A stretch of DNA of 64,000 bases from Listeria ivanovii subsp. londoniensis (GTDB lineage: Bacteria > Bacillota > Bacilli > Lactobacillales > Listeriaceae): contig NZ_CP009576.1 in the NCBI RefSeq assembly GCF_000763495.1, positions 1,622,001 to 1,686,000 of the forward strand. Reading direction: 5' to 3'. The notes under the pieces are model-generated. The model did no database searches. It was not told where the DNA came from and saw only the letters and a list, made by a program, of their open reading frames with translations. Each line of letters starts with the position of its first letter. Positions within the stretch are counted from its first letter, which is position 1. Shown one piece after another: positions 21,084 through 29,990 of the stretch. A program made the translations under genes and the position numbers.

Positions 21084-21087
21084 AACT

Positions 21088-21117
21088 GAGCCACTTACAT
21101 TTTTGTAAGTGGTTTTT
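21088..21117 (+). terminator. Terminator of the DUF1189 gene
   Basis: Stem CCACTTAC/GTAAGTGG followed by T5, directly after the stop codon. Confidence 0.85.
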
Positions 21118-21239
21118 CCGTGCCCAAATAGGCGTGATTTTGCGTCTTGAAAATGGTATGATTAGAAAATCAATTTGATTGAAGCTTACAATAGTATACA
21201 CCCTAGAATAACTGCTTCTAGTCTGGGAGGGAGAGTTTT

Positions 21240-27397: not shown

Positions 27398-28705
27398 TTA
27401 TCGTTTTTTCCGTCTTTCACGACGTTTAATTTCGTTCATTTTATAGTTGATTTTCTTTTTGTAATTTGGTTTTCCTTTTTGTTTTGCTTTTTTACGCATA
27501 CCAATTTCACGTGGATCTGCTGTTTCGCGTTTAGCTTCACGTTTGGCACGACGATTGCGGTCTTCTAGTGTAACGAATTCTTTGTTTTTCCAATCAACAT
27601 GCTTGAATTCGATGCCCATTTTTTCTAGTTGGTTTAGACGATCTTCATCAGCTGGTTCAAATAAAGTTAACGCGATACCTGAATGTCCTGCGCGACCAGT
27701 ACGACCAGTTCGGTGAATATAAAAATCTAAGTCATCTGGTAGTTCGTAATTGACAACATGGCTAATACCTTGGATATCAATACCACGTGCTGCTAAATCC
27801 GTTGCAACTACATACTGATAATCTAAGTTTTCGATTTGTTTCATCGTTCGTTTACGTTCGCGTGGGTTAACGTCACCGTGAATTTTGGCAACTTTTAGTC
27901 CACGTTCTGTTAAACCGTTCGCTACTTCATCCGCAGTTGTTTTTGTGTTTGTAAAAACAATCGCCAAATAAGGCTGTGAACCAACTAAAACGTTTTTAAG
28001 TAAGTCTAATTTATCACGGCTGCGAGTCGCCATAATCCGATGTTCTACTGTTTTAGATGCAGCTACTTTTGGTTGAATATGCTCATAGCGTGGGTTTTCC
28101 ATGTATTTACTTAAAAATGGTTTTAATTTTTGCGGAATTGTTGCCGAGAAAACAAGCATTTGCAAGTTAGCGGGCATTTTTCCAGCGATATGGTCTACAT
28201 CGTTTAAGAATCCCATATCAAGTGTCATGTCTGCTTCGTCGATAACTAATGTTTTCGCTGTATGAACAAATAAAGCTTGCTCACGAATTAAATCATTAAT
28301 CCGACCAGGTGTTCCGACAATAATTTGTGGTTGTTTTTTTAATTTATCAATCGCACGTTGTTTATCCGTACCACCAATAACAAGTTGAACAGCGATTTCT
28401 TTTTCGCTAAACTTGGTTACTTTGCGAATTTCATTATAAATTTGGGTAGCAAGCTCACGACTAGGTGCTGTAATAACTGCTTGTACGGCATCTTTTTCTG
28501 GATTCACATTGTTAATTATTGGCAAAATAAAAGTATGGGTTTTCCCTGTACCTGTTTGCGATTGTCCAATGATACTTTCCCCTTTTAGAATACCTGGGAT
28601 TAGCTTTTGTTGTACTTCTGTCGGCTCGTAAAATCCTAATTTATCTATTGCAAGCCCAATAAAAGGTTGAAAGCCAAATTGGTCAAACCTTGATTTCTTC
28701 GTCAT
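27398..28705 (-). CDS. cshB: DEAD-box RNA helicase CshB
   Basis: ATP-dependent RNA helicase, 435 residues, linked to cold growth and RNA turnover in Firmicutes. It shows the Q motif (FGFQPFIGLAIDKLGFYEPTEVQ), GQSQTGTGKT, PSRELATQ, TPGRI, DEAD in LVIDEADMTLD, SAT, the C-domain IHGDV and HRTGRTGRAG. The C-terminus is strongly basic, likely for RNA binding. Start taken as ATG at 28705 (MTKKSRFDQFG); a GTG-type extension to 28741 would cover the -10 element. Confidence 0.93.
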   Translation of the reverse strand: MTKKSRFDQFGFQPFIGLAIDKLGFYEPTEVQQKLIPGILKGESIIGQSQTGTGKTHTFILPIINNVNPEKDAVQAVITAPSRELATQIYNEIRKVTKFSEKEIAVQLVIGGTDKQRAIDKLKKQPQIIVGTPGRINDLIREQALFVHTAKTLVIDEADMTLDMGFLNDVDHIAGKMPANLQMLVFSATIPQKLKPFLSKYMENPRYEHIQPKVAASKTVEHRIMATRSRDKLDLLKNVLVGSQPYLAIVFTNTKTTADEVANGLTERGLKVAKIHGDVNPRERKRTMKQIENLDYQYVVATDLAARGIDIQGISHVVNYELPDDLDFYIHRTGRTGRAGHSGIALTLFEPADEDRLNQLEKMGIEFKHVDWKNKEFVTLEDRNRRAKREAKRETADPREIGMRKKAKQKGKPNYKKKINYKMNEIKRRERRKKR

Positions 28706-28739
28706 AAAATATTTCCACTCCGTTCTATACCTAGTAGCC

Positions 28740-28745
28740 ATTATA
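28740..28745 (-). promoter_or_regulatory. Extended -10 promoter element of cshB-nfo-ppaC
   Basis: TATAAT preceded by TG one base upstream on the minus strand (TGCTATAAT), 35 bp before the cshB ATG. The -35 region is poor. Confidence 0.55.
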
Positions 28746-28825
28746 GCACAGATTAAGTCATTCGTGCGCGCTATAAGACAACTTTATCAAAACAATCAAA
28801 GCGAGTTATCCAAAACAGAAAAATA

Positions 28826-28868
28826 AAACCGGCTATTTTTTATCTAATTAAGAAATAGCCAGTTTTTA
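28826..28868 (-). terminator. Terminator after the Nif3-like gene
   Basis: Stem AAAACTGGCTATTT/AAATAGCCGGTTTT (G-T pairs allowed), T-rich 3' side, immediately after the stop. Confidence 0.8.
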
Positions 28869-29990
28869 TTAGCAAAATTGGAAAGGATCCGTATTAACTT
28901 CTGAGACAATAAATTCTGCTTCGTAATCTAAAATTTTTGCTTGTTCTTCTATTTTGGTTTTTAAGTAACCTTTCATAACTTTTTCGATATTGTGCCCTGG
29001 ATCAATTGTTGGTAAATTAATCGCAAGTAATTCATGCCCAGTATGATAATATACGTCCCCTGTAATAAAAACATCTGCACCGGTTGCTTTGGCTTTATGA
29101 ATAAATTTATTGCCATCGCCACCAATAATCGCAACTTTTTTTACAGTTGTTTTTAAATCCCCAATAAAACGTACATTTTCCACTGCAAAAGCGGTTTTTA
29201 TTTTATCAATAAATGCTATCATACCCATTTTTTTCGGTAACGTTCCTATGCGTCCTAGCCCTTCTTTATACACAAGATTTTCTAAGCGATACACATCCAT
29301 TGCTGGTTCTTCATATGGATGGGCAATTCTCACAGCTTTTGTAATAGTTTCTGTTAAATGTTCTGGAAAAACAGCTTCGATTTTCACTTCGGGAGTATTC
29401 GTTAATTGTCCTTTTTTACCAATAGTAGGTTTTGCGTTGCTACTTGGCTTAAAAGAGCCTATTCCATCTGTTTGAAAAGTACATTCGCTATATTCTGTGC
29501 CAATTTTGCCAGCTCCATTATTGACTAAAGCTAAGCGAACGGCTTCAAGATCATTTTCTGGAACATATACCGCGATTTTACAGTAAGGTTCTGTGTAGGT
29601 TTCTTCAATGAAGGTAGTGTCCTGTAATCGAAGTAAATCTGCTAGAATATCATTGACACCACCTTTTGCTACATCTAAGTTAGTATGGGCAGCAAATACT
29701 GTAATATCATGCTTAATTAGCTTTTTAATCATTTTCCCTTGTTTAGTTGTTGTATCAATTTGGTGCGTCGGTCGATACAAAAATGGGTGGTGAGCAATAA
29801 TTAAATCTACCTTTTTTTCAATGGCTTCGTCTACTACTTCTTCTAGAACATCTAATGTAAACATGACTTTCCTTACTTTTCTAGACAAATCCCCAACTTG
29901 TAATCCGATTGGGTCGCCTTCCATCGCTAGTTTTTTAGGTGCGATTTTTTCAAGAATTGCAATATATTCATATCCACTTGCAACTTTCAT
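28869..29990 (-). CDS. Nif3-like dinuclear metal centre protein (YqfO family)
   Basis: Toroid-forming Nif3/DUF34 protein of 373 residues, long form with an inserted CutA-like middle domain (about 130-235, from KIAVYVPENDLEAVRLAL). Dinuclear metal ligands sit in LIIAHHPFLY, FAAHTNLD and, at the C-terminus, INLPTIDPGHNIE. Some members are proposed GTP cyclohydrolase-like or metal-trafficking proteins; the precise role is not settled. It overlaps trmK by 4 bp and follows rpoD-trmK, the same order as in Bacillus. Confidence 0.88.
   Translation of the reverse strand: MKVASGYEYIAILEKIAPKKLAMEGDPIGLQVGDLSRKVRKVMFTLDVLEEVVDEAIEKKVDLIIAHHPFLYRPTHQIDTTTKQGKMIKKLIKHDITVFAAHTNLDVAKGGVNDILADLLRLQDTTFIEETYTEPYCKIAVYVPENDLEAVRLALVNNGAGKIGTEYSECTFQTDGIGSFKPSSNAKPTIGKKGQLTNTPEVKIEAVFPEHLTETITKAVRIAHPYEEPAMDVYRLENLVYKEGLGRIGTLPKKMGMIAFIDKIKTAFAVENVRFIGDLKTTVKKVAIIGGDGNKFIHKAKATGADVFITGDVYYHTGHELLAINLPTIDPGHNIEKVMKGYLKTKIEEQAKILDYEAEFIVSEVNTDPFQFC

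What the first reader, a model, noticed from the sequence alone, without database searches (positions are those of the whole stretch)
28706..28868. ispH (lytB) missing from its expected locus, a second independent deletion
ispH (lmo1451) should separate cshB from the Nif3-like gene. Here the gap is 163 bp, filled by the cshB -10 element and the terminator of the Nif3-like gene. ispG and ispH are about 7.5 kb apart with intact genes between, so two separate clean deletions are needed. That suggests pathway-level loss of selection rather than one accident.
Basis: partly seen in the sequence, partly recalled or inferred. Interest (0 to 1): 0.7.

Follow-up and report, generated by a model that had tools for sequence, protein, structure and literature searches.

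The report
Shortened isoprenoid pathway stub kept
This Listeria genome has lost the last three enzymes of one of its two isoprenoid-making routes, yet its first four enzymes are still guarded by natural selection, which suggests that they make something other than isoprenoids.

Summary
The cshB–nif3 gap (28706–28868, 163 bp) has no ispH, and a whole-genome search finds none. ispG is absent too. Across 25 congeneric genomes the two genes are present or absent together: 16 have both, 9 neither.

All 25 keep dxs, dxr, ispD and ispE; 24 have HMG-CoA reductase.

'Pathway-level loss of selection' fails for the four kept genes: in the ispFGH-less clade dN/dS is 0.046–0.098, shifted no more than in 19 control genes, and conserved residues are as intact as in ispG/H+ species. 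Signs of relaxed constraint lie mainly at the distal end.

L. innocua's ispG/H loss is in print and explained by MEcPP production. Without IspF that cannot apply here, unless an unrecognised cyclase exists. Best reading: repeated distal-first erosion in mevalonate users leaves a selected four-enzyme stub whose product lies upstream of MEcPP (product inferred, not shown).

The parts
28706..28868 (.). cshB-nif3 intergenic stretch where ispH lies in relatives: empty ispH site
   Evidence: no ispH in genome
28740..28748 (-). extended -10 (TGCTATAAT) of cshB
   Evidence: by eye; conserved in the aligned relatives
28784..28812 (+). decayed counterpart of the ispH promoter (relatives: TTGTCA-17-TATACT; here TTATCA-17-TATCCA)
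   Evidence: by eye on alignment; inference
28831..28860 (.). terminator-like hairpin between the former ispH and nif3, serving nif3 now
   Evidence: counterpart in relatives
27398..28705 (-). cshB-like DEAD-box helicase, left neighbour
   Evidence: name recalled
28869..29990 (-). Nif3-like gene, right neighbour
   Evidence: name recalled
21084..21239 (.). empty ispG site between the lmo1440-like gene and azlC
   Evidence: no ispG in genome
21154..21162 (+). retained extended -10 of the former ispG promoter (TGGTATGAT), probably now serving azlCD
   Evidence: by eye; short blastn matches to this stretch in 5 of 8 ispG-less gaps; reuse is inference

Best explanation
The empty ispH site is one step of a distal-first erosion of the MEP isoprenoid pathway in Listeria species that make isoprenoids by the mevalonate route. 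ispG and ispH were lost together-in-effect by separate deletions, probably several times in the genus, once loss of one made the other useless. In two lineages, one of them that of this window, ispF was then lost too. Shown: absence of ispF, ispG and ispH; presence of HMG-CoA reductase; retention and purifying selection of dxs, dxr, ispD and ispE. Inferred: Dxs-Dxr-IspD-IspE still work as a pathway and are kept because a product upstream of MEcPP (MEP, CDP-methylerythritol or its 2-phosphate) has a non-isoprenoid use, as a signal or as an activated precursor.
For: ispG and ispH are jointly present (16) or jointly absent (9) in 25 of 25 genomes. ispF is absent in 5 of 25, all of them ispG/H-less, and its site is closed up between ispD and gltX in 5 of 5. 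dxs, dxr, ispD, ispE in 25 of 25. HMG-CoA reductase in 24 of 25, this genome included. Separate events: G019 ispG remnant and differing ispH junctions. dN/dS of the four kept genes within the ispFGH-less clade 0.046-0.098 at mean dS 0.64-1.24; ratio to ispG/H+ pairs 1.26-2.34 against a control median of 1.62, n=19, p=0.97. Conserved-core departures similar to those in ispG/H+ species for all four genes. The ispFGH-less clade is one clade in each of the four MEP locus trees, so working alleles were not imported from ispG/H+ species. IspG and IspH show the fastest relative protein change where kept, in line with distal relaxation before loss.
Against: No enzyme activity or metabolite was measured, and no consumer of a MEP intermediate was found or sought by name. 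The absolute dN/dS of the four genes is above the control median (0.029; p=0.068), highest for dxs. In ispG/H+ species Dxs, IspF and IspD also change faster than controls relative to distant relatives, though Dxr and IspE do not. dN/dS of ispG there (0.022) is not high in absolute terms and dS at ispG and ispH is high. If gene regain is allowed, parsimony needs 3 changes rather than 5 losses for ispG/H.
Confidence: 0.55

Rival explanations
1. The four kept genes are selected for separate or moonlighting roles of single proteins, not as a pathway.
For: The four genes sit at four separate loci (places), each among other genes, so they need not share one cause; dxs tolerates loop deletions and has the highest dN/dS.
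Against: All four are kept in 9 of 9 ispG/H-less genomes with similar constraint, which is simpler under one shared product.
Confidence: 0.22
2. An unrelated cyclase has replaced IspF, so the pathway still ends in MEcPP, as proposed in print for L. innocua.
For: Reviews favour MEcPP as the kept product in Listeria (PMC11192765, PMC13001223, passages). PF02542 finds only IspF homologues and would miss an analogue.
Against: Four species-level genomes that lack ispG/H still keep ispF, so IspF is not generally replaced once ispG/H go; no candidate cyclase is known to me.
Confidence: 0.12
3. Plain decay: the whole pathway lost selection and the four remaining genes have simply not yet been lost.
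For: Three of seven genes are gone here; dN/dS of the four is somewhat above the control median.
Against: dN/dS is about 0.05-0.1 over mean dS 0.64-1.24 in a clade that lacks all three genes throughout; open frames in 8 of 8 sensu stricto ispG/H-less genomes apart from shifted C-terminal stops of ispE in two; core residues as intact as in ispG/H+ species.
Confidence: 0.07
4. ispG and ispH were lost once at the base of the sensu stricto species plus G009 and were regained by the monocytogenes/marthii group through recombination, with one later loss in G019.
For: Equal-cost parsimony gives 3 changes against 5 losses under a loss-only rule. ispH site alleles do seem to move between species (G019 mosaic).
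Against: Both genes sit at the same two places in the sensu stricto ispG/H+ species and flanked alike in sensu lato; IspG and IspH of the sensu stricto keepers do not fall inside the sensu lato diversity; ispG start-site remnants persist in G005/G012.
Confidence: 0.2

Closest known systems
Truncated MEP pathway of Listeria innocua (lacks ispG/gcpE and ispH/lytB)
   Same: Lacks ispG and ispH, has the mevalonate marker gene, keeps dxs, dxr, ispD, ispE (literature passages).
   Different: ispF is also gone here, so the route cannot reach MEcPP by any known enzyme.
Loss of non-mevalonate genes in L. monocytogenes lineage III (PMC3556495, one passage)
   Same: Loss of non-mevalonate isoprenoid genes within a group that otherwise keeps them; G019 may be such a lineage (inference).
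   Different: G019 keeps ispF and a visible ispG remnant; this window shows no coding remnant.
Incomplete MEP pathways in Enterococcus and Streptococcus noted in PMC13001223 (passage)
   Same: Incomplete MEP set beside a complete mevalonate pathway.
   Different: Which genes remain there was not seen; supplements were not open to me.

Membership tests
L. innocua-type truncated MEP pathway ending at MEcPP | ispG and ispH absent | tested here: met
L. innocua-type truncated MEP pathway ending at MEcPP | dxs, dxr, ispD, ispE present with open frames | tested here: met
   best PDB matches for three of the four (Dxr, IspD, IspE) are the expected enzymes
L. innocua-type truncated MEP pathway ending at MEcPP | ispF (MEcPP synthase) present | tested here: not met
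   PF02542 absent from the whole genome, present in 20 of 25; site closed between ispD and gltX
L. innocua-type truncated MEP pathway ending at MEcPP | mevalonate pathway supplies IPP | tested here: inconclusive
   only HMG-CoA reductase was sought and found; the other mevalonate genes were not tested
L. innocua-type truncated MEP pathway ending at MEcPP | MEcPP is made | not testable with these tools
   needs metabolite measurement
Pathway in neutral decay | remaining genes show relaxed selection or broken frames | tested here: not met

The most novel reading that the evidence does not exclude
In the ivanovii-, seeligeri-, immobilis- and welshimeri-like Listeria, Dxs-Dxr-IspD-IspE form a repurposed four-step pathway that has run without IspF, IspG and IspH since before the first three of these parted. 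Its selected product is CDP-methylerythritol, its 2-phosphate, or MEP, used as a signal or as a CDP-activated donor in the manner of CDP-glycerol or CDP-ribitol. MEcPP would then not be the reason why Listeria in general keep partial MEP pathways.
Probability: 0.4. Interest if true: 0.75.

Novelty: new variant of a known kind. Interest (0 to 1): 0.52.

Why it matters
Reviews of 2024 and 2026 explain the partial MEP pathway of Listeria by the stress signal MEcPP (passages). Five species-level genomes without IspF that still guard the four upstream genes contradict that as a general explanation. They turn the question of non-isoprenoid roles of MEP intermediates into a natural experiment: compare ispF+ with ispF- species that both lack ispG and ispH. 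The pattern also gives an order of loss (ispG/ispH first, then ispF, never the other four in 25 genomes) that can be tested in other mevalonate users.

Tried and rejected
Rejected: assembly gap or gene moved elsewhere (one-contig genome listed at 100% completeness, whole-genome searches negative). Rejected: one deletion taking ispG and ispH together (nine genes between them). Rejected: import of working dxs/dxr/ispD/ispE alleles from ispG/H+ species as the cause of low dN/dS (clade intact in the four locus trees).

Rows dropped: one search used 3 of 6 pairs within the ispFGH-less clade (G000 left out as close to G013) and 5 of 21 pairs of the seven ispG/H+ sensu stricto genomes; of 21 candidate control genes sod was dropped (missing in the ispG/H+ stretches) and zurR left the ratio test (zero denominator), leaving 19. 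Some controls are merely ORFs of 150 codons or more beside the MEP genes, not annotated genes. One search used 6 of 9 sensu lato genomes (G001, G006, G007 left out: broken frames or partial genes) and left G015 out of ispE (bases N). Searches used 6 of 7 ispG/H+ sensu stricto and 7 of 9 sensu lato genomes. One search used 25 genomes with some genes missing for G001, G006, G007 and G015.

Full report
What is there. Between cshB (to 28705) and the Nif3-like gene (from 28869) lie 163 bp with no ispH. The genome (one contig, 3,045,035 bp, listed at 100% completeness) has no match to PF02401 (ispH) or PF04551 (ispG). The ispG site, 21084-21239, is empty too. The window itself is probably an L. ivanovii-like species: that name, and those of G024 (welshimeri), G020 (seeligeri) and G019 (a monocytogenes lineage III-like genome), are recalled or inferred and come from no call.

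Distribution. Of 25 genomes of the genus, 16 have ispH and the same 16 have ispG; 9 have neither. One ispH copy (G001) and one ispG copy (G015) are read in pieces, in genomes listed at 89% and 83% completeness. ispF is absent in 5 of 25: G000 (the window's genome), G011, G013, G020, G024, all among the nine. In these five, ispD is followed directly by gltX; G000 and G013 keep a short ispF 3' remnant that G024 lacks (by eye). dxr, ispE, dxs and ispD are in 25 of 25. HMG-CoA reductase is in 24 of 25, the exception, G021, having the full set of MEP genes sought.

Separate events and history. A 25-genome tree puts G000, G013, G011 and G020 in one clade (support 98), G024 elsewhere among the sensu stricto species, G005 with G012, G019 inside the monocytogenes-like group beside G018 (100), and G009 as sister to the sensu stricto species. 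With losses only, ispG/H went five times and ispF twice; letting gains cost the same gives 3 and 2. The place of G024 is weak (52), so the count of five could be four. Junctions differ between lineages. G019 is telling: its ispG site keeps an ispG remnant (tblastn E 8e-8; blastn pieces 1-247 and 248-310 of the gap), and its ispH site is a mosaic, 96-100% like G017 on the cshB side, 93-96% like G018 on the nif3 side, but 89% like G012 and G005 in the gap, whose nif3 side is only 80-86% alike. So a null ispH allele may have moved by recombination while ispG broke in place (inference). In G009 the cshB-nif3 gap is about 130 bp without ispH, and the ispG site lies in a larger loss that also took azlCD, prsA and zurMA from that place. 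The promoter-like -10 of ispG is kept where ispG is gone, probably because azlCD now use it, whereas the ispH promoter has decayed (inference).

Selection. Within the ispFGH-less clade (G013, G011, G020; 3 pairs) pooled dN/dS is dxs 0.098, dxr 0.057, ispD 0.072, ispE 0.046, at mean dS 0.64-1.24. Ratios to ispG/H+ pairs are 1.55, 1.82, 1.26 and 2.34, against 19 controls with median 1.62 and range 0.54-3.47 (Mann-Whitney p 0.97). Against my reading: their absolute values lie above the control median of 0.029 (p 0.068), and the close pair G000-G013 gives 0.246 for ispD at dS 0.09, a small-sample value. Departures from columns invariant in six sensu lato genomes are alike in ispFGH-less and ispG/H+ species: dxr 21-24 against 20-21 of 255, ispD 6-8 against 6-8 of 117, ispE 11-12 against 13-15 of 186, dxs 49-66 against 50-70 of 412 (alignment gaps count as departures, which raises dxs in species with the loop deletion). 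Dxr, IspD and IspE of this genome match solved enzymes of the same names.

The distal end. In ispG/H+ sensu stricto species, protein distance relative to that among sensu lato species is 1.01 for IspG and 0.65 for IspH, 0.44 for Dxs, 0.35 for IspF, 0.25 for IspD, 0.14 for Dxr, 0.10 for IspE, and 0.00-0.19 for eight controls. The genes that relax most are those lost elsewhere, except dxs, which is relaxed but never lost. dN/dS of ispG (0.022) and ispH (0.049) is not high in absolute terms, and their dS is high (1.24, 1.12), so part of the effect may be divergent alleles.

What it means. L. innocua's lack of ispG and ispH is in print, and reviews say that the partial route makes MEcPP as a stress signal (PMC11192765, PMC13001223, PMC12632256: passages only). 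Lineage III loss of non-mevalonate genes is mentioned in PMC3556495 (one passage). Without IspF, MEcPP cannot be made by any known enzyme. So in this genome and four others the four upstream genes must be kept for something else, or an unknown cyclase exists. I commit to the first: a product upstream of MEcPP is the selected one. I found no paper in the held library that reports ispF loss in these species (ten searches); the library lacks most subscription journals, and the key papers by Begley and by Lee were not held.

Noticed in passing
L181-L186 (dxs of G022, G003, G017, G015, G016, G002): Dxs lacks about 30 residues of an internal loop in 6 of 7 ispG/H+ sensu stricto genomes, with two different sets of ends; G018 keeps the loop, and of the ispG/H-less ones only G011 has a smaller gap there.
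   Followed up: partly
G021 (no locus for the missing gene): The 2.1 Mb relative G021 has no HMG-CoA reductase match but matches for all seven MEP enzymes sought: the reverse loss.
   Followed up: no
L237 (ispD of G009): G009 IspD departs from 25 of 117 core columns, against 6-8 in the sensu stricto genomes, while its Dxr and IspE do not stand out.
   Followed up: no
L250: In G009 the ispG-azlCD-prsA stretch and zurM/zurA are missing from this neighbourhood; the genome-wide zurA search at E 1e-60 found none in G009.
   Followed up: partly
L200, ispH site: A gene-absence allele of ispH in G019 looks transferred between species by a short recombination tract.
   Followed up: partly
L106, L154, L239, L016 (G001): G001 shows frame breaks in dxr, ispE, ispD and ispH; with 89% completeness this may be assembly error.
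   Followed up: no
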